Positions 1 through 9,056 of a stretch of 64,000 bases of DNA are shown in pieces. The notes under the pieces are model-generated. The model saw only the letters and a list, made by a program, of their open reading frames with translations. It did not search any database and was not told where the DNA came from. The translations under genes were made by a program, and so were the position numbers. Position 1 is the stretch's first letter; every line of letters begins with the position of its first letter. Origin of the DNA: Arthrobacter sp. H35-D1 (lineage in GTDB: Bacteria > Actinomycetota > Actinomycetes > Actinomycetales > Micrococcaceae). The stretch covers positions 95,687-159,686 of the forward strand of contig NZ_JASISP010000003.1 of NCBI RefSeq assembly GCF_030063185.1. Direction: 5' to 3'.

Positions 1-17
1 TGACTTTTGCAGAGAGC

Positions 18-482
18 TTGGCTACGTATGTCCACGAGATTGTAAAGCTCCCCATCCGGGATACTCTTCAGGAGCTCAGTAATGTTTGGGGAATGGCGTG
101 GGCGGATGTCGCCAGAATGGTTGGTATTAGTGTTCCAGCACTGCGTAAGTGGAGAGTCTCAGGGGGAGCGTCCGGCGAAAACCATCGGCGAGTAGCAGAA
201 CTCCTGGCATTTATCCGGGTCTTGCATGAGGTCGGAGTCAAGGAACCGGCCGGATGGATTTCAATCCCCCTAGTCGATGGATATACGGTGACACCGCGGC
301 ACCTGTACGGTTCTAACTCAGCGCCAACGTTGGTGGATGTAGCCTCGAGTTCAATTAGTCCTACGATTGCCCTTGACGAGCTATCGCCTGGATGGCGAGA
401 GGCCTACTCCTCCGAATTTGAGGTGCAGGCCTCTGCCGACGGACAATCTGCAATCGTCGATAGAAGGCAAATGCATGGCTGA
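18..482 (+). CDS. HTH-type small protein, antitoxin-like; start may lie left of the window
   Basis: A 154-residue protein read from a TTG at 18. The frame stays open to base 1, so the true start may lie outside the window. Residues about 15-70 look like a helix-turn-helix followed by an alpha-helical region (WADVARMVGISVPALRKW). This resembles the DNA-binding half of Xre/MbcA-type antitoxins, but the match is by eye only. The C-terminal half has no recognised motif. Its last 8 nt overlap the ATG of the next gene, so the two are probably translated together. Local base composition looks less GC-rich than the core genes further right, consistent with an accessory region. I cannot assign a function beyond probable DNA binding. 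Confidence 0.55.
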   Translation: MATYVHEIVKLPIRDTLQELSNVWGMAWADVARMVGISVPALRKWRVSGGASGENHRRVAELLAFIRVLHEVGVKEPAGWISIPLVDGYTVTPRHLYGSNSAPTLVDVASSSISPTIALDELSPGWREAYSSEFEVQASADGQSAIVDRRQMHG

Positions 483-1233
483 TGTCCTTGAGTTCCTTAT
501 CCCACCACCGGAACTCTATGACTACCGGCGGGACGAAGAAGATGGCGTCCCATTTTGGCTTCCGTATGCTCAAGGGGACGTCTTTGAGAACATCACTATG
601 CCTGGTTTTCCTGACGATGATGCCGGGCTTGCCATGCTTTTCATGCACCCGTGCACCATGCGTGAGGGTGCTGTGCTCAGAGAATTTGTAACGGCGATAA
701 AAGTTGATGTCTTTAGCTCAAAGAAGGTAGTCAGTGCCCCGGAGAAGTGGGCCAACCGAAACAAACTTATGCCTTTGCCCGACCTTTTTGGGGGAGGACA
801 TTCCACTCACATTGCCGACTTCATGAAGATCAGCACGATCCCGTCTGCTAGTTTGAATCGCAGCAGCAGAGTGTGCCAGCTTTCAATTGAGGGACGGCTG
901 CAGATGCAGCAGCGCCTAATTTTCCATCTGAGTCGATATGCACCATCAGTGGACGTGCTTCGGACAGCCACAGCAGCGTTGGACTTGGAAATGCAGGCCC
1001 AAACAGACTGGATGGAGGCGGCCAGTTTGGCCGGTGCGTTGCGTGGCGCAAGTTCAGTCATTGAGCAGGAAGCTAACTTCGATGCGTTCATGGGTGCATC
1101 GATAATGGAATCGAGAGCCTTGAGTGAAACTGCTAATAGACCTCCCTCTCGCCGTGAACTTCTGCGAAGTCCGCACGACGCTCCGTCCGTCGTGCGTGAC
1201 GTGCAGAGACAAATCCAGCAGCTCTTCAGCTAG
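475..1233 (+). CDS. Unknown protein with an HPCTMR motif, coupled to the HTH gene
   Basis: A 252-residue soluble protein with no signal peptide or membrane segment. The ATG at 475 lies inside the end of the preceding gene (8-nt overlap), which supports this start over the longer open frame. Visible landmarks are MHPCTMREG near residue 60, a LPDLFGGGHSTHIADF stretch in the middle, and a helical region with LQMQQRLIFHLSRYAP. I do not recognise the family. The arrangement (small HTH protein, then a larger partner with overlapping reading frames, beside a type I modification operon) is what one sees in toxin-antitoxin or defence modules, but no toxin fold was identified. The pair converges on hsdS and is separated from it by a strong hairpin. 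Confidence 0.6.
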   Translation: MADVLEFLIPPPELYDYRRDEEDGVPFWLPYAQGDVFENITMPGFPDDDAGLAMLFMHPCTMREGAVLREFVTAIKVDVFSSKKVVSAPEKWANRNKLMPLPDLFGGGHSTHIADFMKISTIPSASLNRSSRVCQLSIEGRLQMQQRLIFHLSRYAPSVDVLRTATAALDLEMQAQTDWMEAASLAGALRGASSVIEQEANFDAFMGASIMESRALSETANRPPSRRELLRSPHDAPSVVRDVQRQIQQLFS

Positions 1234-1340: not shown

Positions 1341-2579
1341 TCAGATTGCTTCCGAGACGAGTGACTCGGCGTCCTTGACGCGCAGCTTGCCGGACATCAG
1401 CTGCGGGAGCAGTGCGTCGCGGGTGGCGGCGAGCATTGAGTTCTCCTTGAGCGCATTTCTGGCGGCAGCATGGAGCGGTATTGCTTTGGTTTCGAAGGCT
1501 CGCATAGTTTCTGAATTGGCGAGACGGACTTTGAATTTCTTGAAGTTACCGCGGCTTAGCTCCAAGAACGTTGCGCCATTCGCCAGAGAGATGAACTCGT
1601 CTACTCGACTGAGCATTTCATGAAACAACCAGTAGCGCATGCCCGGTTCGTTTGGCTCTACCACGATGAAACCCTGGTTTACCGCAGTTGGAACTTGGGC
1701 AATGGCGAACGCTCCGATCGTCGCTCGAGAAGTCATCAGAATGGCGCCTGGCTGGAACAAGTCCGACGAACACGTGGATAAGCCGTCCACCGTAATAGGC
1801 CGCGAAGTTGCCTCAAGGTAGGGGCCTCGAAGCGCGGTAACGTCCGTCGGTGTTGCCCAGTTGGTGTCACCACCCCAGTATTCGGGCACCTTGGTGCTTG
1901 GTGTTCCACCGCCGCTGACCTTAGCTACGTCCGCAAATGTCTTGTCTGAAAAGTCGACAGCAAGGATGGATTGGTGGAAGAGGGTCTTCGCTAGATCAAG
2001 CGATGTGGCAGCGAGTTTGGTGTTGGCGGCGATTTTGTCGTCGAGTGCGCCCAGGACTTCAGCGATTGCCCGCTGCTGGCCTAAGGCTGGAAGCGAAATC
2101 TTCTGAGTGGCTGCAAAAGCGGTGTATTGGAATCGAGCCACTCCAGTGTGTTGAACCTGATACTGTTCGATTTCCCCGGACTGATACATCGCTTGAAGGA
2201 ACCAGTAGAGATATCGGGCGTCAATTCGAGAACCATCAACCCTCAGAAAACGAGCAAAGCTTGCGCATGTTGCCGGACCTGAGAGTGCGGCCATGACTCG
2301 ATCGGTTACCAGCATCGTTCGGCCGGTGGGGCGTCCGGGAGAGCCTCCTGCGGTCTCAATCAGGATGTCGTTTTCTTGGAGAGTTCGTCTGCTCACTGTA
2401 TGCGCCGGCAAATATCGGGTAGGGACGTTACCCATGTTTCCGAGCGAGGCAGCTGAAAAGTCGGTAGCTCGAATCACCTGATACTTCAGTAAACCGTCTT
2501 CGGGATCGCCTTTGCCCCAGTCCCCGTCTTTGGTTGTCAGCAGGAGATCTTGCAGTAGTGGGGAGTCTTCGATTTTCAT
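1341..2579 (-). CDS. hsdS: Type I restriction-modification specificity subunit HsdS
   Basis: A 412-residue HsdS that supplies sequence recognition for a type I methyltransferase complex. Two target-recognition halves are visible. The first ends with GQQRAIAEVLGALDDKIAAN, the conserved helical spacer. The second holds GGGTPST..YWGGDTNWATPTDV and ends with a second helical region (RDALLPQLMSGKLRV). The length is normal for the family. The ATG at 2579 overlaps the hsdM stop by 4 nt (ATGA), so S is translated right after M. The sequence looks lower in GC than hsdM, as is common for exchangeable specificity genes. No hsdR follows: the next gene to the left is on the other strand. Confidence 0.95.
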   Translation of the reverse strand: MKIEDSPLLQDLLLTTKDGDWGKGDPEDGLLKYQVIRATDFSAASLGNMGNVPTRYLPAHTVSRRTLQENDILIETAGGSPGRPTGRTMLVTDRVMAALSGPATCASFARFLRVDGSRIDARYLYWFLQAMYQSGEIEQYQVQHTGVARFQYTAFAATQKISLPALGQQRAIAEVLGALDDKIAANTKLAATSLDLAKTLFHQSILAVDFSDKTFADVAKVSGGGTPSTKVPEYWGGDTNWATPTDVTALRGPYLEATSRPITVDGLSTCSSDLFQPGAILMTSRATIGAFAIAQVPTAVNQGFIVVEPNEPGMRYWLFHEMLSRVDEFISLANGATFLELSRGNFKKFKVRLANSETMRAFETKAIPLHAAARNALKENSMLAATRDALLPQLMSGKLRVKDAESLVSEAI

Positions 2580-4186
2580 GAAACCCGCCCCAGCTGCTCG
2601 CGCACTACAGCCGCCAGCCGCGAAGACTCGTCGAACTGGGTGAACAACTCGGCTGACAAGCGCGCGATTTTTTCCTCGATCGGTTCGCCGTCGTCCTCGA
2701 CCTCGGCGGCGCCCACGTAGCGACCCGGGGTGAGTGCATAATCGGCGGCCTTGATTTCGGCGAGGGTGGCGGACTTGCAGAAGCCGGGTTCGTCGTCGTA
2801 CTCACCGGAGTCAGCAGTGGTGCCGCGCCAGGCGTGGAACGTCCCCGCGATGCGAGCAATGTCCTCATCAGAAAGTGCACGCTCGGCGCGGTCCACCATG
2901 TGGCCCAGGTTCCGGGCGTCGATGAACAGCACCTGACCGGTGCGGTCCACAGATCCGTGGTCACCGGCGGTCTTGTCCTTCGCAAAGAACCACGTGCACA
3001 CGGGAATGCCGGTGGAACGGAACAACTGGGTGGGCAGGGCAATCATGCAGGAAACCAGGTCCGCCTCCACCAGCTCGGCACGGATTTCGCCCTCACCGCC
3101 GGAGTTCGAGGACATGGAACCGTTGGCCATGACCACACCGGCGGACCCGCCCGTGGCCAGCTTGGAAATGATGTGCTGGATCCACGCATAGTTCGCGTTC
3201 CCGGCCGGGGGAACACCGTACTTCCAACGCGGGTCCGACTCCGACCGCGCCCAGTCCTTGATGTTGAACGGCGGGTTGGCCATGATGAAATCGGCCTGCA
3301 TGTCCGGGTGCTGGTCGCGGGCAAACGTGTCGCCCCAGCGGGAGGCCAGGTTGCCGTTGAGCCCGTGGATGGCCAGGTTCATCTTCGCCATCCGCCACGT
3401 ACGCTCGTTGAGCTCCTGACCGTAGACGGAAATCTCCGAGCCCTCCTTGTTGTGCGATTCCAGGAACTTCTCAGCCTGCACAAACATGCCACCGGAACCA
3501 CACGCGGGGTCGTACACGCGGCCGTGGTCCGGGCGCAGCACCTCCACCAGCACACGCACCACACCGGCCGGGGTGTAGAACTCGCCGCCGCGCTTGCCCT
3601 CGGCGCGGGCAAACTTCTCCAGGAAGTACTCGTACACCTCGCCGAGCAGATCCCGGGCCTTTGTGGCACCCTGACCGGTGAACTTGGCGGAGTTGAACAG
3701 ATCCAGCAGTTCACCCAGACGGCGCTGGTCAATGTTGTCCTTGTTGAAGATCATCGGCAGCGTGGCAGCCAGCGACGGGTTGGAGCCCATGACGTACGCC
3801 ATGGCGTCGTCGATCAGTTCGCCGATGCTCTTGGCATGCTCATCCACGGTGGCCTGCGTGCCCTTGGCATTCTGCGCCAGGTACGTCCAGCGGGCGCGGG
3901 CCGGAACCCAGAACACGCCGCGGCCGGTGTACTCGTCCACGTCGTCGATCAGCTGGCCGATCTGCTCCTCATTCAGCCCGTCCGCTTCCAACTCAGTCCG
4001 GATCTGCTCGCGGCGCTCGTCAAAGGCATCGGAAACATACTTCAGGAACACCAGCCCCAGAATTACGTCCTTGTACTGCGAGGCATCCATGGACCCGCGC
4101 AGCTTGTCCGCGGCCTTCCACAGCGTGTCCTTCAGTTCCTTCATGGTCGACGGCAGTGCCTCAACCGTGCCCTTCTTCGCAGCCAC
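2576..4186 (-). CDS. hsdM: Type I restriction-modification DNA methyltransferase subunit HsdM
   Basis: A 536-residue N6-adenine methyltransferase. The N-terminal helical HsdM domain (about 15-160) is followed by GEFYTP (201-206), the AdoMet motif DPACGSGG (226-233) and the catalytic NPPF (304-307). All are intact, so the enzyme should be active with HsdS. The start is a GTG at 4184-4186 that shares one base with the stop of the upstream fusion gene (TAGTG), giving a tightly coupled three-gene operon: fusion, hsdM, hsdS. With no hsdR in the window, the operon could act as a stand-alone epigenetic methylase or depend on a distant R subunit. Confidence 0.95.
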   Translation of the reverse strand: MAAKKGTVEALPSTMKELKDTLWKAADKLRGSMDASQYKDVILGLVFLKYVSDAFDERREQIRTELEADGLNEEQIGQLIDDVDEYTGRGVFWVPARARWTYLAQNAKGTQATVDEHAKSIGELIDDAMAYVMGSNPSLAATLPMIFNKDNIDQRRLGELLDLFNSAKFTGQGATKARDLLGEVYEYFLEKFARAEGKRGGEFYTPAGVVRVLVEVLRPDHGRVYDPACGSGGMFVQAEKFLESHNKEGSEISVYGQELNERTWRMAKMNLAIHGLNGNLASRWGDTFARDQHPDMQADFIMANPPFNIKDWARSESDPRWKYGVPPAGNANYAWIQHIISKLATGGSAGVVMANGSMSSNSGGEGEIRAELVEADLVSCMIALPTQLFRSTGIPVCTWFFAKDKTAGDHGSVDRTGQVLFIDARNLGHMVDRAERALSDEDIARIAGTFHAWRGTTADSGEYDDEPGFCKSATLAEIKAADYALTPGRYVGAAEVEDDGEPIEEKIARLSAELFTQFDESSRLAAVVREQLGRVS

Positions 4187-6258
4187 TAGCTGGTTCCTTC
4201 CCTAGGTGTATCCACAATTCCAAAATGTCCGTTCACAACACCCTCCAGCAGCGCCCCGCCCAGCTCGTCCAGCTGGGCCAACCGTACCGCCAGCCTGTGA
4301 CGTTCCGCCGCGACCTGGGCCAATGCCCCGTCCAGGGCGGGCTTCACCTCTGTGTCCACCCGCCGCACGGTCCGCTGCCGCCACGGCCCGGGCGGTGCGT
4401 TCCTGAAGTCCTGCGCAAGCATTTGCGGCAGCATGCTTGCCTTGTTCCTTGCCCCGATCCGTAGAATCCGAGCCGGATAGAGCACGACGCCGGACCCCGC
4501 CTCATCGACCACGGCGCTACCTTGCGCTCCGGTAGTGAAGATGACGTCGCCCGGTTCGGTCAGCCGGCCCTGGGGGTAGGCGTTCGCCATTACAAGTTGG
4601 TTGATCTTCCGGGATCCCCACGGCTGCTGTCCACTGACTTCCTCCGGACCAATGATAGTGAACTGCGCGCTGCCGGACTGCATGGCTTCCAGGTGCCCGG
4701 CGTCGACCCTGAGGCCGGGCAGGTATTTGAGGGAGCCGTCCTTGAGGGCCTCACCGACCGAACAGGGCGGTCTCGGTGCGACCTTGCCTGCCACAAGGCG
4801 CAAGGCGGCAAGCGGTGGGCCGCCGTCGCGAACTTGGGTGAGCAGGTCTTCGGCTGCCACCAGTTTGGAGCTGGCCTCCGCATGGGATGGAACCCTTTGT
4901 TGGGGTGTTCTGTGTGCCGGGGCTGCTGCGGTCAGAGAGCCGGAGCCGGCCAGCAGCGAACGCGTCAGCACCAGCGTGGTGAAACGAAAGGAGTGCGCCC
5001 GGATTTGCGTTCTGTCTCCCAGCGACGCCGCCAAGTCCCCCACGAGGTCCTGCAGGACATCCTTGTTCAAATCCACCCCGGTCAGATTCGCCACCATGGT
5101 CCACCGATCGGGGATCTCCACATGGTTGTGTGCCTCGCCCAAGACCCACAACGCCATGGCCTGGCGGGGTTTTGCAGGGACTAGCCCTTGGGGGAGCCTG
5201 ACAATGGCCCGGATGCGGGCCGAGCGCAGGATGTCCGACCGGATGCGCCCGGCATCGCGGCCTTCAGGGGAAGGCGGCAGGGCGTCCGTCAAAATTGAGG
5301 CGGGCGCAAGGACCACGGCCGTGGCGTGGCCCTCCATCCCCAGCGCCATCTCGTCGATGGCCGCAAGAACCTGAACCGCATCCGTTAACGGGTGCGACGG
5401 CGAGGGGAACTGGGCGAACCTGACAACGGATGCCGAGCGTTCCGCAGGTGGCGGCGGTTGCCGGGTGATGCGCAGGTTTTCCTTATATCTGCCAAGGACC
5501 TGCATACGGCGCCAAGCCAGCCGGGCCGCAGCATCCGAGCCGGCGCCAACACACAGCACCGCCACCTCCGCCTCGCCCAAAATGTCCGCGACGGCCGGCA
5601 AGAAGCCGCTGCCGCCGTCGTCCATGAAAACGGGGGGATTCAGGCTGCCCGCAGCCAGCTCAAGGGCGGCCGAAACTGCCAGATCAACCGCCTCCGGCGT
5701 CAGTGCAGTCCTGCCCTGCGCCGGGGAATCGGGGCCCGCGCGGTCCAGCAGCAGTTCGAAAGCCGCGGCGGCCGTGTAGGAAGCATTGCTGAGCTGGTCT
5801 GCATACCGGGCGAGGGGAAGAAGCTGGCCGCCCACGTTCTCAAGCTCGCTGTAGAGGAGCTCGTCGTCTGGATCGCATTCATCGGCCATGTCCAGTAGAT
5901 CCTCGACGCTGTGGGAGCCCAACGGCGAATCCCGCAGGCAGCGCAAAGCAAGAAGTGCGGTCAAGGCCGTGAAGTGCTCGATTTTGGTGTCGGGGCCCGG
6001 TGGGGAGGCAAAGGCGGCAGCGTCCTCGCGGGCCTGGGGATTGTTGCCCCGGCCGGTCTCGGAAAGCCATCCCGTGACCTCGGCGGCGTCGAAGAGTTCC
6101 TGCCGCCCACGGACGCCGACCGGAAGCGGAAAAGGGGTGTGCGTGTGCTTGTTGCGTGAGCGCCACATCGACACCACGGGGCGTTGCACGCGGGCCAGGC
6201 CGGCAATGTCGGAAAGGGTGAGGCGCAAATCTAGCTGGATCTGTTGCTTGGCAGTCAT
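4186..6258 (-). CDS. HTH / degenerate N6-methylase / HsdS-like fusion protein
   Basis: A 690-residue first gene of the hsd-like operon. The ATG at 6258 has a strong ribosome site (AAGGAGGAACGC). Residues about 10-60 form an HTH/MerR-like segment. Residues about 95-440 follow the HsdM fold: a helical part, a GSG remnant of the AdoMet loop (216-218, in VFMDDGGSGFLP) and IRAIVRLPQG (349-358), which matches the HsdM strand after the catalytic site. The catalytic NPPF/NPPY is absent; the aligned place reads FAQFP (281-285). Residues about 500-690 resemble an HsdS half, with GDVIFTTGAQGS (570-581) and a terminal helix. I infer a catalytically dead methylase fold that binds DNA and perhaps docks on HsdM/HsdS. 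Similar single-chain N-6 DNA methylase-like proteins occur in actinobacteria, but I know of no fixed role. Confidence 0.75.
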   Translation of the reverse strand: MTAKQQIQLDLRLTLSDIAGLARVQRPVVSMWRSRNKHTHTPFPLPVGVRGRQELFDAAEVTGWLSETGRGNNPQAREDAAAFASPPGPDTKIEHFTALTALLALRCLRDSPLGSHSVEDLLDMADECDPDDELLYSELENVGGQLLPLARYADQLSNASYTAAAAFELLLDRAGPDSPAQGRTALTPEAVDLAVSAALELAAGSLNPPVFMDDGGSGFLPAVADILGEAEVAVLCVGAGSDAAARLAWRRMQVLGRYKENLRITRQPPPPAERSASVVRFAQFPSPSHPLTDAVQVLAAIDEMALGMEGHATAVVLAPASILTDALPPSPEGRDAGRIRSDILRSARIRAIVRLPQGLVPAKPRQAMALWVLGEAHNHVEIPDRWTMVANLTGVDLNKDVLQDLVGDLAASLGDRTQIRAHSFRFTTLVLTRSLLAGSGSLTAAAPAHRTPQQRVPSHAEASSKLVAAEDLLTQVRDGGPPLAALRLVAGKVAPRPPCSVGEALKDGSLKYLPGLRVDAGHLEAMQSGSAQFTIIGPEEVSGQQPWGSRKINQLVMANAYPQGRLTEPGDVIFTTGAQGSAVVDEAGSGVVLYPARILRIGARNKASMLPQMLAQDFRNAPPGPWRQRTVRRVDTEVKPALDGALAQVAAERHRLAVRLAQLDELGGALLEGVVNGHFGIVDTPREGTS

Positions 6259-6561
6259 GCGTTCCTCCTTTCCTCGTGGCGTTCCTGACCGTGGGGTTAC
6301 AGCTTATGCCGTTATCCACACTTCTTATCCACAGTGTTGATAACCCCTGTTATCAACGTTCAATGATTGTTCGCTGTTGCATCTGTTCTAGTGTCATTAC
6401 ATCAACGGGGATGCCAAGTCCGGAAATGAAATGGTGGGCCCATCTATTGGGGGCGGGCCCACTCCGCCAAGGGAAGTCTGGAGTGCCAGAGCCTCCTGCA
6501 AGACTTCGCACAAGCCGCCGGATCATCACTGAATGCATCGCCCCAGTCCTCAGGAGGAACA
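6259..6561. other. Divergent intergenic region of the hsd-like operon
   Basis: This 303-bp gap separates the leftward hsd-like operon from the rightward membrane-protein genes. It holds the box cluster at 6312-6358. It must also contain promoters for both directions, but I could not assign -35/-10 elements with confidence. No gene was seen in it. Confidence 0.6.
6312..6358. promoter_or_regulatory. Cluster of four TTATC(C/A)AC(A/G) boxes, DnaA-box-like
   Basis: Two perfect TTATCCACA boxes lie at 6312-6320 and 6325-6333. TGTTGATAA (the complement of TTATCAACA) is at 6335-6343 and TTATCAACG at 6350-6358. The last two form a perfect 9-bp inverted repeat, GTTGATAAC and GTTATCAAC, around CCCT. TTATCCACA is the consensus DnaA box. 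The cluster sits 54-100 bp upstream of the leftward fusion gene. It may be a DnaA-binding site, or the operator of the HTH domain encoded just downstream. Confidence 0.6.
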
Positions 6562-7107
6562 ATGACATCGCCACCACCGGAGTTTCCGCCAACTGGCCCT
6601 GACAAGCCGGATTTCCCGGAACAGTATTCAAACGTGCAGCAAGCTCCGACGGATACATGGGGCCAGCCTGTTTTCCCTGTACCAGCTCCCTTGCGGAAAA
6701 GCAGGAAGCACCTGTACTTCGGTTTCGGCGGGCTGGCTATTGGGATGGCGGCAGGACTGCTTTTGGGCGTGGTGGGTGGAGCCGTTGGCGGGGCCGTGGC
6801 TGGCCCCAGCGCCATTCCGACTGCAGTAGAGAAGTGTGCTGCCGTCGATGCCACAGGGGTTGACGTCATGGACGCGGGCAAGAGCTTGAACCTGTCTACG
6901 GCAGGCACGGAGAACGATGGCGCCAATATGTTGACTGTCGTTTGTGTTCTCACCGCGCTGGAAGCGCCGGACAGCCTCTCCACGAAGCTGGATTCAACCC
7001 GAGCCTTGGATGGAACCCAGAGAAGTGAATGGGCGGGGTTCACCGCGTCGTGGACCTATCACCCGGACAACGGTTTGAACATCATTTTGGAAACCGCAAA
7101 CCAGTAG
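6562..7107 (+). CDS. Membrane-anchored protein of unknown function
   Basis: A 181-residue protein with a strong ribosome site (CAGGAGGAAC). Residues 1-50 are a proline-rich cytoplasmic segment. Residues about 55-80 are a glycine-rich membrane span (FGGLAIGMAAGLLLGVVGGA). The rest is extracytoplasmic, with two cysteines (in EKCAAVD and VVCVLT) that could form a disulfide. This layout (Pro-rich N terminus, one span, small exported domain) is frequent in actinobacterial surface proteins of unknown role. It is the first of a rightward series of small membrane proteins ending at 9056. No catalytic motif is visible. Confidence 0.75.
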   Translation: MTSPPPEFPPTGPDKPDFPEQYSNVQQAPTDTWGQPVFPVPAPLRKSRKHLYFGFGGLAIGMAAGLLLGVVGGAVGGAVAGPSAIPTAVEKCAAVDATGVDVMDAGKSLNLSTAGTENDGANMLTVVCVLTALEAPDSLSTKLDSTRALDGTQRSEWAGFTASWTYHPDNGLNIILETANQ

Positions 7108-7132
7108 TCGGCCTGAGCGAAAAGGAGATGTC

Positions 7133-7306
7133 ATGACAGGACAAATGCCGGCAAAGGATGCGCAGTCCGGCGGTGCCGCCGAGGTGAGCATCAGTCCAGC
7201 GATTCCGTGGCGGATGCTGTTTCCACTTCCGCTGCCACCAATTTCGAATGATTCCAGGGCTGTGGGCCAAGCTCCAGCCACCTGCGCCACGTGTCCCAAG
7301 AACTGA
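7133..7306 (+). CDS. Possible 57-residue small protein
   Basis: An ATG at 7133 follows a very good ribosome site (AAAAGGAGATGTC). The frame runs 57 codons to TGA at 7304-7306, starting MTGQMPAKDAQSGG and ending with a CATCPKN tail. It has a proline-rich hydrophobic middle and two closely spaced cysteines, but no clear domain. It lies between two membrane-protein genes in the same direction. It could be a genuine small gene or the remnant of a longer one; the ribosome site is the main support. Confidence 0.4.
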   Translation: MTGQMPAKDAQSGGAAEVSISPAIPWRMLFPLPLPPISNDSRAVGQAPATCATCPKN

Positions 7307-7385
7307 ATTGGTTCCCGGACAAAGCGACGATGTTGAATTTTGAAAAACCGGCCTTCAATTCGGCCAACTGTCTTTAGGGGAAGTC

Positions 7386-8132
7386 ATGAATAAGCCAGAA
7401 CAACTGAAATCCAAGGATTCAGACAAGTCCGCTACATCCGGTACCACGGCAGGCAGTGGAACAGTCAGCCAAAAACAAGAGCCGATGCCTGTTGCTCCAG
7501 TCAAGCCTGGCTTTCCGTCGCCGACTGCACCCGCCGGGAAACAACCAAAGGGTGGCAAGCTTCCAAGCGGAAAACTGCTGGCAGCCTTGGTTGTCGGTGT
7601 CCTGCTTGCCGGCGGAGGATTCTGGCTTGGAAAGGTGACGACCGATCCGACCATCAGTGACGCATATGTTGCACTGGAAGCAACTTCGCGGACAGCGGAG
7701 CTGGACCGTGACGTTTACAGTGCACAAACACGGGCACTGCAGGGAAAAGTGGTATCGCTTGAGAAGGAAATCGAGGAGCGGGAGGATTCTGTGTCAGGCC
7801 GTGAGGCCGCGCTGACGACCGCTGAAGCGGCACTGAAAACCCAAGAAGAAGACCTCACGAAGCGTGAAGCGGCTGTTTCCGGCACCGAGAAAAAACAAGC
7901 GGCAAACACGGTCAGCGACGGCACCTGGGTTGTGGGCGTGGACATTGAACCAGGTTCGTACAAAGCCAAATCCGACGTGGGTTCGAGATGCTATTGGGGC
8001 ATCTACGCCAGCGGCAGCAACGGCGACGACATCATCGCCAACGATATTCCCGGCGGAGGGCTCCCCACAGTGACTCTCGCCGCGGGGCAGGACTTCAAAT
8101 CTTCCCGCTGTGGGTCCTGGACCCGGCAATAA
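7386..8132 (+). CDS. Membrane-anchored coiled-coil protein with a C-terminal exported domain
   Basis: A 248-residue protein of unknown function. It has a Pro/Lys-rich cytoplasmic N terminus (1-60) and one membrane span (LLAALVVGVLLAGGGFWLG, about 63-81). A long charged coiled coil follows (about 110-170, with repeated EKEIEERED and EEDLTKRE heptads). The C-terminal domain contains DGTWVVGVDIEPGSY and two cysteines (SRCYWG, SSRCGSW). The W-VG-D--PG-Y pattern recurs in exported domains of many actinobacterial proteins, where its ligand is unknown. The ATG at 7386 has AGGGGAAGTC upstream. A hairpin follows the stop. Confidence 0.8.
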   Translation: MNKPEQLKSKDSDKSATSGTTAGSGTVSQKQEPMPVAPVKPGFPSPTAPAGKQPKGGKLPSGKLLAALVVGVLLAGGGFWLGKVTTDPTISDAYVALEATSRTAELDRDVYSAQTRALQGKVVSLEKEIEEREDSVSGREAALTTAEAALKTQEEDLTKREAAVSGTEKKQAANTVSDGTWVVGVDIEPGSYKAKSDVGSRCYWGIYASGSNGDDIIANDIPGGGLPTVTLAAGQDFKSSRCGSWTRQ

Positions 8133-8152
8133 CGAACTAATCCAGCTGGCGA

Positions 8153-8175
8153 CGGGCCGTTCTGGACACGGCCCG
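8153..8175 (+). terminator. Hairpin after the coiled-coil protein gene
   Basis: CGGGCCGT (8153-8160) pairs with ACGGCCCG (8168-8175) around a 7-nt loop, about 20 nt after the stop at 8132. No T-run follows, so termination strength is uncertain. Confidence 0.5.
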
Positions 8176-8261
8176 CCAAGCATACGACTCACACCATCAA
8201 CAACAACCAGCATCACCAACTACCGGCACCGGCAGCTTTGCCATGCCCGAAAGGAATCATC

Positions 8262-9056
8262 ATGACGCACAACGCTTATGTGAAAACGCCCCAGCAGGCG
8301 CCATTCAATCCGGCCAGGCAGGAGGGACCCAAGTCCTTTTTGGCAACGTGGCTGCTCTCCTTGTTCCTGGGTTACTGGGGAGTGGACAGGTTTTACCTGG
8401 GCAAGGTGGGCACCGGCCTGCTGAAACTTTTCACCCTTGGCGGACTCGGTGTATGGGCGCTGATCGACTTGATCATCACCTTGGCCGGGAAGCAGACCGA
8501 CAAGGCAGGGAACTCCCTGGCCGGCTACTCCAAACACAAGGTCGTGGCGATTGTGGTGACTCTGGCGTTGCTGCTGGTGGGTGGCATCGGCGGCAGTGTT
8601 GCCGGAGCATCCGCCGGAAGTGCGATTTCCGGATCCGGCAGCCAGGACCCTGCTCCTGTGGGCCCCGAAGCAGAAGCCCCCGCAGCGCCCGTCGCGGAGC
8701 AGGAGCCTGTAAAAGAGGAGCCGGCGGCCAAGGAACCGGCAGCAGAGGCAACGTGGGTTGAGGTTGTGGCCCTGTCAGGCACCGCGGATCAAGCCAGCCA
8801 GGTCTTTGAACTCTCGGGCAAGGAAACCCGCATGGTGTACGAATTCCTTGGCTCCGACCCGGACATGGCCATTGCCGCCATCTACGTGGAAAAGGAGGGC
8901 AAAGACATCATGGTGGACGGCGGCGTTCCCGTTGTCATGGCCAGCAAACCGGAGAGCAACACCACGGCCTTGCACAAGAAGGCCGGCAAGTACTTCCTGG
9001 ACGTCAAGGCAGCAAACCTGGACTCCTGGACCGTGAAGATCGAAGAAAAGAAGTAG
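8262..9056 (+). CDS. TM2-domain membrane protein
   Basis: A 264-residue protein with an N-terminal TM2 domain (about 18-85). It has two membrane spans with the family's conserved pattern LLSLFLGYWGVDRFYLGKV followed by GLGVWALIDLI. A third span (about 92-120) leads to an Ala/Glu/Pro-rich linker and an exported C-terminal domain. That domain has no known catalytic motif. TM2 proteins are widespread and their role is not settled. The ATG at 8262 is chosen because AAGGA sits 6 nt upstream; a TTG 24 nt further up is in frame but lacks a site. A hairpin shared with the converging gene follows. Confidence 0.85.
   Translation: MTHNAYVKTPQQAPFNPARQEGPKSFLATWLLSLFLGYWGVDRFYLGKVGTGLLKLFTLGGLGVWALIDLIITLAGKQTDKAGNSLAGYSKHKVVAIVVTLALLLVGGIGGSVAGASAGSAISGSGSQDPAPVGPEAEAPAAPVAEQEPVKEEPAAKEPAAEATWVEVVALSGTADQASQVFELSGKETRMVYEFLGSDPDMAIAAIYVEKEGKDIMVDGGVPVVMASKPESNTTALHKKAGKYFLDVKAANLDSWTVKIEEKK

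What the first reader, a model, noticed from the sequence alone, without database searches (positions are those of the whole stretch)
4186..6258. Dead methylase fold fused to HTH and HsdS-like domains, heading an hsdM-hsdS operon that lacks hsdR
The 690-residue protein follows the HsdM fold but has FAQFP where NPPF/NPPY should be and only a GSG remnant of the AdoMet loop. It also carries an N-terminal HTH and a C-terminal HsdS-like half. It overlaps a fully intact hsdM by one base, and hsdM overlaps hsdS by four. One operon thus encodes an active M/S pair and a pseudo-enzyme that could compete for, redirect or sense the methylase. I know of no named system with this order. It could be a methylation-dependent regulator or a defence sensor with no classical nuclease.
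Basis: partly seen in the sequence, partly recalled or inferred. Interest (0 to 1): 0.75.

Follow-up and report, generated by a model that had tools for sequence, protein, structure and literature searches.

The report
Dead methylase likely regulating restriction operon
A large gene that looks like a DNA methylase with its active site destroyed heads a bacterial restriction-modification operon, and a matching DNA switch found in front of it and its relatives suggests that it has become the operon's own transcription regulator.

Summary
The claim that hsdR is missing fails: the genome's only HSDR_N protein is a full-length hsdR about 23 kb downstream on the same strand, and an hsdR was found for 40 of 42 X loci. 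New finding: a palindrome, GATAA-N6-TTATC, lies upstream of X in 39 of 42 loci exactly and 42 of 42 with at most one mismatch; its longer form TGATAA-N6-TTATCA occurs once in this 4.46-Mb genome, even with one mismatch allowed. A -10-like hexamer starts exactly 40 bp past its centre in 29 of 42, with no -35 signal. An imperfect copy with its own -10 precedes hsdR in 12 of 18 loci where hsdR is detached, this genome included, and in 0 of 23 where it adjoins hsdS. Best reading: X is a pseudo-methyltransferase turned dedicated regulator, probably activator, of a type I RM system. Binding was not tested. New variant of a known kind (RM controllers).

The parts
4186..6258 (-). X: 690-aa HTH / pseudo-methyltransferase / HsdS-like protein, proposed controller of the RM system
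6055..6225 (-). N-terminal HTH of X (about residues 12-68), the most conserved part of the family (mean pairwise identity 0.54 against 0.36-0.44 elsewhere)
5059..5643 (-). pseudo-methyltransferase part of X (about residues 206-400): motif I site reads DDGGSGF, motif IV site reads AQFP
4189..4773 (-). HsdS-like C-terminal part of X (about residues 496-690)
   Evidence: X family vs HsdS Prob 83; wider fusion proteins vs HsdS Prob 97.1
2576..4186 (-). hsdM, intact (DPACGSGG, NPPF)
1341..2579 (-). hsdS
6337..6356 (.). X-box: perfect palindrome TTGATAAC-AGGG-GTTATCAA, centre 88 bp upstream of the X start; only TGATAAN6TTATCA in the genome even with one mismatch allowed
6301..6306 (-). -10-like TAAGCT, starting exactly 40 bp past the palindrome centre

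Best explanation
X is the dedicated transcription regulator of a complete type I restriction-modification system. It evolved from an HTH-methylase-specificity fusion protein whose catalytic site was lost. Steps shown: (1) X heads hsdM-hsdS, and an hsdR is present, adjacent or detached; (2) its catalytic motifs are gone in the whole aligned family; (3) a palindrome sits at a near-fixed place in front of X and goes with X, not with its divergent neighbours; (4) a weaker copy with its own -10 sits in front of hsdR in many loci where hsdR is separated from hsdS. Steps inferred: (5) an X dimer binds the palindrome through its HTHs; (6) because the box is held at a fixed distance from a -10 that lacks a -35 (centre near -52, TSS not mapped), binding probably activates transcription (about 0.55; auto-repression is the alternative); (7) a perfect box at X-M-S and an imperfect one at hsdR would let methylase build up before nuclease; (8) the pseudo-M/S body may sense HsdM or target sites, or only dimerise.
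For: Box: 39 of 42 X upstream regions exact, 42 of 42 with <=1 mismatch, 0 in any of 200 Markov shuffles of the set. Spacing: a TA[N][GA][CAG]T hexamer at exactly +40 in 29 of 42, at +41/+42 in 3 more; the TTGACA match at the -35 position is no better than shuffled (2.45 vs 2.39 of 6). Mean identity across 42 X promoters: box 0.74 (partly by construction, as regions were aligned on it), -10 0.47, flank 0.30, spacer 0.27. Linkage to X: TGATAAN6TTATC in 34 of 36 genomes with X against 7 of 44 without (grouped; the reversed control pattern hits 10 of 80), one of the 7 (G035) having it at a contig edge beside the usual X neighbours. The divergent neighbours U1/U2, in 11 genomes without X, have no exact GATAAN6TTATC within the 16-18 kb fetched (0 of 11). 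In this genome TGATAAN6TTATCA is unique even with one mismatch (reversed control 3 per strand). hsdR: imperfect box plus TA[CG][CG]GT at +41 to +43 in 12 of 18 detached hsdR and 0 of 23 adjacent hsdR; across 11 hsdR promoters box 0.73 and -10 region 0.69 identity (both aligned on the motif) against flank 0.27 and spacer 0.39. X diverges far faster than HsdM and HsdR (mean identity to the window's proteins over 26 loci: X 40, HsdM 82, HsdR 75, HsdS 32%), while its HTH is its best conserved part. Precedents: regulatory MTases with an N-terminal HTH and C proteins (PMC12707154, passages); HsdC upstream of hsdMSR and a controller-methylase fusion in Mollicutes (PMC5282649, passages).
Against: No binding, expression or TSS data. 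That X rather than another protein reads the box rests on co-occurrence. Six of 18 detached hsdR genes have no recognisable box, so control of hsdR is not universal; this genome's own hsdR box has 3 mismatches in 12, near chance level by itself (best match of 3 or fewer in 42 of 840 shuffled regions), and counts only through its conserved place and -10. Nine of the 12 hsdR boxes come from one genus (g1). Ten of 42 X promoters lack the -10 at +40 to +42. Several distant relatives in front of hsdM-S-R have no such palindrome. AlphaFold gave no usable model (pLDDT 34.9).
Confidence: 0.68

Rival explanations
1. X is a plain auto-repressor: binding the box limits its own operon (as RptR or HsdC do), without activation.
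For: The two type I regulators whose papers I opened act as repressors: RptR (PMC12255303, abstract and passages) and apparently HsdC (PMC5282649, passages).
Against: RptR and HsdC sites overlap the -10, whereas the X-box centre lies about 40 bp upstream of the -10 at a nearly fixed distance, with no -35 signal.
Confidence: 0.28
2. X is a subunit or decoy of the RM enzyme: its pseudo-M/S body joins HsdM or HsdS to tune assembly, specificity or restriction, and the HTH is secondary.
For: Fold relation to HsdM and HsdS, 1-nt overlap with hsdM suggesting coupled translation, constant pairing with hsdM (41 of 42).
Against: X diverges much faster than HsdM and HsdR, and the HTH is its best conserved part. 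It does not explain the box. It may be true in addition.
Confidence: 0.15
3. The box is read by another factor (host regulator, or HsdM-HsdS), and X has some other role.
For: Binding was not tested; in six of 42 loci, this one included, DnaA-box-like 9-mers lie between box and -10 (name recalled), so other factors may act there.
Against: The box goes with X (34 of 36 genomes against 7 of 44), is unique in this genome and absent beside U1/U2 without X. HsdS varies (mean 32% identity) while the box does not, so it is hardly the methylation target.
Confidence: 0.1
4. X is still an active or conditionally active methyltransferase.
For: It is related to fusion proteins that keep near-intact motifs (DPACGSG plus NPPY in L135 and L139).
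Against: 0 of 39 X proteins keep [NDSH]PP[FYW] or the motif I loop.
Confidence: 0.03

Closest known systems
C (controller) proteins of type II RM systems
   Same: Encoded with the RM genes; described as binding upstream of and activating their own promoter and delaying nuclease relative to methylase (PMC12707154, passages).
   Different: X is 690 aa with a pseudo-methylase and an HsdS-like body, not a small HTH protein (size recalled), and serves a type I system.
Regulatory methyltransferases (Ecl18kI and SsoII are the names in the passage)
   Same: HTH fused to the N-terminus of a methyltransferase, with a binding site between the RM promoters (PMC12707154, passages).
   Different: There the methyltransferase itself auto-represses and is the system's enzyme; X has no catalytic motifs and stands beside a separate active HsdM.
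HsdC of Mollicutes type I systems
   Same: Regulator gene upstream of hsdM-S-R; a fusion of controller and methylase is listed (PMC5282649, passages).
   Different: HsdC binds direct repeats (GTGTTAN5)2 over the -10; no pseudo-M/S body is mentioned in the passages seen.
RptR
   Same: First gene of a type I RM island with cargo between hsdS and hsdR; autoregulator (PMC12255303, abstract and passages).
   Different: Small protein, TAGCTA sites over the -10, repressor, reported across Gammaproteobacteria.
HTH-N6_Mtase-HsdS fusion proteins in the same phylum (two of them, P0001 and P0002, match PADLOC MTase_I model PDLC03037)
   Same: Same three-part build, 627 aligned columns; some stand in front of hsdM-S-R (L081, L139, L148).
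   Different: Several keep motif I and [HN]PP[FY] and have no hsdM, S or R in the fetched stretch (L134, L135, L137, L138, L141, L143).

Membership tests
Type I restriction-modification system (hsdM, hsdS, hsdR) | Intact HsdM | tested here: met
   PF02384 2.9e-113, HsdM_N, DPACGSGG and NPPF
Type I restriction-modification system (hsdM, hsdS, hsdR) | HsdS | tested here: met
   PF01420 3.1e-21
Type I restriction-modification system (hsdM, hsdS, hsdR) | HsdR in the genome | tested here: met
   Only HSDR_N hit in the genome, full length, same strand, about 23 kb away; relatives of it adjoin hsdS in other X loci. That it works with this HsdM/HsdS is inferred.
Active N6-adenine methyltransferase (X) | AdoMet motif I and [NDS]PP[FYW] | tested here: not met
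   0 of 39 X proteins
C-protein family (small Xre-like HTH) | Small HTH_3-type protein | tested here: not met
   X has 690 aa and no Pfam hit at E<=1; the family definition is recalled
RM autoregulator (functional class) | Conserved operator-like site at own promoter | tested here: met
   39 of 42 exact, 42 of 42 with <=1 mismatch
RM autoregulator (functional class) | The protein binds that site and changes expression | not testable with these tools
   needs EMSA and reporter assays
Regulatory methyltransferase (SsoII type) | HTH plus catalytically active MTase | tested here: not met
   HTH present, catalytic motifs absent

The most novel reading that the evidence does not exclude
X is a methylation- or assembly-sensing transcription activator. 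Its pseudo-HsdM/HsdS body binds HsdM, or unmodified target sites, and passes that state to the HTH, so that hsdR is switched on through its weaker box only once enough methylase has accumulated: a type I counterpart of the C-protein timer built from a dead copy of the enzyme it controls.
Probability: 0.25. Interest if true: 0.82.

Novelty: new variant of a known kind. Interest (0 to 1): 0.64.

Why it matters
[quoted passage not shown] Here is a family-wide candidate: a dead enzyme of methylase fold with a defined candidate operator that one gel shift can test, and a second, weaker site at a detached nuclease gene, which suggests how a nuclease gene can end up tens of kilobases away behind cargo and still stay under common control. 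Its relatives show degrees of decay, from near-intact HTH-methylase-specificity fusions to pure pseudo-enzymes.

Tried and rejected
Direct Pfam and NCBIfam identification of X failed (0 families); 3 of 39 family members hit N6_Mtase weakly, best 3.3e-4. A PDB sequence search with the X profile gave HsdM-like matches of E 0.0077, 0.49 and 0.5 and three unrelated ones. The structure prediction from a two-row alignment was unusable (pLDDT 34.9, pTM 0.28), so no fold search was run. A viral-contig scan found no relative.

My first profile comparison with HsdM (Prob 100 and 91.9) was partly circular: the HsdM set held one HTH-fusion protein (L080), and the fusion set held X-like rows. I repeated it clean and quote only that; X vs HsdM fell from Prob 91.9 to 65.3, while the two-step link through the fusion proteins stayed (99.9 and 100).

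Considered and rejected: 'operon without nuclease' (hsdR exists and is linked); box as methylation target (HsdS varies, box does not); box as property of the divergent U1/U2 genes (0 of 11 X-less U loci have it); U1-U3 as obligatory parts (U2 relatives occur in 11 sampled genomes without X).

Paper searches whose listings showed no description of an HTH plus dead HsdM/HsdS protein as RM regulator: (open-licence PMC library only; subscription papers and preprints not held). One search returned no paper.
Full report
What is there. The window is G000:C33:95687-159686 of a 4.46-Mb genome in 86 contigs. On the minus strand, X (6258-4186, 690 aa), hsdM (4186-2576, 536 aa) and hsdS (2579-1341, 412 aa) form one block; X and hsdM share one base (TAGTG) and hsdM and hsdS share ATGA. 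HsdM is intact. X hits no Pfam or NCBIfam family at E<=1. The one relative found in the named genome collection is an Arthrobacter MAG locus at 84% identity.

X is a family. A search of 245 genomes of the family matched 42 at E<=0.001, five of them (G065, G132, G173, G214, G235) through the HTH stretch alone; 5 of 72,556 plasmid records match. 39 X proteins were aligned; they are 29-84% identical to the window copy. Over 26 loci with all four genes, mean identity to the window's proteins is X 40, HsdM 82, HsdR 75 and HsdS 32%. Four of the five plasmids were opened: each is annotated hypothetical protein, class I SAM-dependent DNA methyltransferase, restriction endonuclease subunit S, type I restriction endonuclease subunit R, in that order.

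X is a dead methylase with HTH and HsdS-like end. In a clean comparison X aligns over 627 columns to 12 HTH-methylase-S fusion proteins (hhalign Prob 99.9); these align to HsdM (Prob 100) and HsdS (Prob 97.1); X aligns directly to HsdM at Prob 65.3 and to HsdS at Prob 83; the control, HsdR, gives 0.2. An earlier run gave higher values for HsdM but was partly circular; with a thin HsdM alignment X did not align (Prob 0.2). The fusion proteins show degrees of decay: DPACGSG plus NPPY (L135, L139), DPACG-type plus HPPF or HPPY (L134, L137, L138, L141, L143), DPVAGSG plus DPPY (L148), DPMIGFA plus EGPW (L081); in the window's X the sites read DDGGSGF and AQFP. None of 39 X proteins has [NDSH]PP[FYW] or a DP.CG.G-like loop.

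hsdR exists. The genome has one HSDR_N match, at G000:C33:73417-74034, in a 1124-codon ORF (L082:4868-8242, -) with HSDR_N, SWI2/SNF2 and T1RH-like_C domains. It lies about 23 kb downstream of hsdS, same strand. Of 42 X loci used here, 41 have hsdM and hsdS beside X (L063 ends inside X). An HsdR is in the fetched flank of 29; in eight more, this genome included, it is farther off on the same contig and strand, and in three on another contig; some of these hsdR are broken (for example G025, G128). For L007 none was seen in the 22 kb held, and L063 cannot be judged. Gaps between hsdS and hsdR reach about 54 kb (G115). So this is a complete type I system whose hsdR has been separated by cargo, not an M/S pair without nuclease. 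That the distant HsdR is the partner of this HsdM/HsdS is inferred from linkage, strand and its relatives.

The candidate operator. Upstream of X, GATAA-N6-TTATC is present in 39 of 42 loci, and in 42 of 42 with one mismatch allowed; none of 200 Markov shuffles of the set gave any. The three inexact cases are the two Streptomyces plasmids (TGGTAACC...GGTTATCA) and L056. In the window it is the perfect palindrome TTGATAACAGGGGTTATCAA at 6337-6356, centre 88 bp before the X start. TGATAAN6TTATCA occurs nowhere else in the genome, also when one mismatch is allowed; the reversed control pattern then gives 3 per strand. Of 80 genomes, TGATAAN6TTATC occurs in 34 of 36 with X and 7 of 44 without (my grouping); the reversed control occurs in 10 of 80. 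One of the seven, G035, has it at a contig edge next to genes that usually flank X. Outside the family, L131, a full-length match to the X profile in front of hsdM-S-R, has the box; other distant HTH-fusion loci (for example L081, L139, L147, L148, L149) do not.

The promoter. A hexamer of the TAnGCT kind begins exactly 40 bp past the palindrome centre in 29 of 42 loci and at 41 or 42 in three more; ten have none there. At the place of a -35 the match to TTGACA is no better than in shuffled sequence. Box identity across loci is 0.74 (partly by construction), -10 0.47, flank 0.30, spacer 0.27. A fixed distance between a dyad near -52 and a -10 without -35 is what activator-dependent promoters look like (general knowledge; TSS not mapped).

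The second site at hsdR. In loci where hsdR is more than 2 kb from hsdS or on another contig, 12 of 18 carry an imperfect box (1-3 mismatches in 12) 73-81 bp upstream of a fixed anchor (residue 61 of this genome's ORF), followed by TA[CG][CG]GT at +41 to +43; of 23 hsdR genes within 2 kb of hsdS none does. The six without are G115, G028, G004, G098 (C91, hsdR broken), G208 and G171. In this genome the hsdR box is TGATAACCCTGCATACCG at G000:C33:74132-74149, about 86 bp before the likely ATG at 74055, with 3 mismatches; alone it would be weak evidence. Across 11 hsdR promoters the box (0.73) and the -10 region (0.69), each aligned on its motif, stand out against flank (0.27) and spacer (0.39). 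Of the 12 loci nine are in genus g1, one in g28 and two in g25.

Controls on neighbours. Divergent genes U1-U3 (6562-9056) are common beside X, but U2, mostly with U1, also occurs in 11 sampled genomes without X, and none of those 11 loci has an exact GATAAN6TTATC. The box goes with X.

Mechanism. I take X for the system's transcription regulator: HTH on the box, body used for dimerisation or sensing. Shown: anatomy, linkage, conservation of the site, second site. Inferred: that X binds, that it activates (about 0.55 against about 0.28 for repression), and that strong and weak boxes order methylase before nuclease. Related ideas exist for C proteins, HTH-bearing regulatory methylases, HsdC and RptR (PMC12707154, PMC5282649 and PMC12255303; passages and one abstract). 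The listings showed no description of a dead HsdM/HsdS fusion as controller.

Score. The family build, the candidate operator and the split hsdR make this a new variant of RM controllers, directly testable by gel shift.

Noticed in passing
window 6562-7107, 7386-8132, 8238-9056 (+): Divergent genes U1 (181 aa), U2 (248 aa, NCBIfam Rv1352/Rv1906c domain) and U3 (TM2 domain) have relatives next to X in many loci. U2 relatives (E<=1e-28) also occur in 11 sampled genomes without X.
   Followed up: partly
G000:C33:76000-95900 (L004) and window 3-1233: The stretch between hsdS and hsdR holds likely cargo: a GmrSD_N protein, a TIGR04255 protein, HipA, a PRiA4_ORF3 protein, a weakly alpha/beta-hydrolase-like protein and what look like metabolic genes.
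   Followed up: partly
window 6312-6320 and 6325-6333: Two TGTGGATAA 9-mers (DnaA-box-like, from recall) lie between the palindrome and the -10; similar 9-mers are in five further loci of the 42 (L007, L042, L043, L044, L054).
   Followed up: no
L146:8873-10600 (-): HTH of the X type fused directly to an HsdM with NPPF, heading hsdS-hsdR, with a palindrome TGCTTAACCGGGTTAAGCA just upstream: possibly an independent case of the same idea.
   Followed up: no
L140:10351-12551 (-): HTH-MTase with DPPY and a separate 210-aa HsdS-like ORF, followed by a second hsdM-hsdS-hsdR set.
   Followed up: no
L148:3058-9517 (-): HTH-MTase fusion with DPPY followed by two different hsdM genes in tandem, then hsdS and hsdR.
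   Followed up: no
L163 (G035:C18:597-614): X-box at the edge of a contig beside U-type genes in a genome where no X was found: probably an X locus cut by the assembly.
   Followed up: partly
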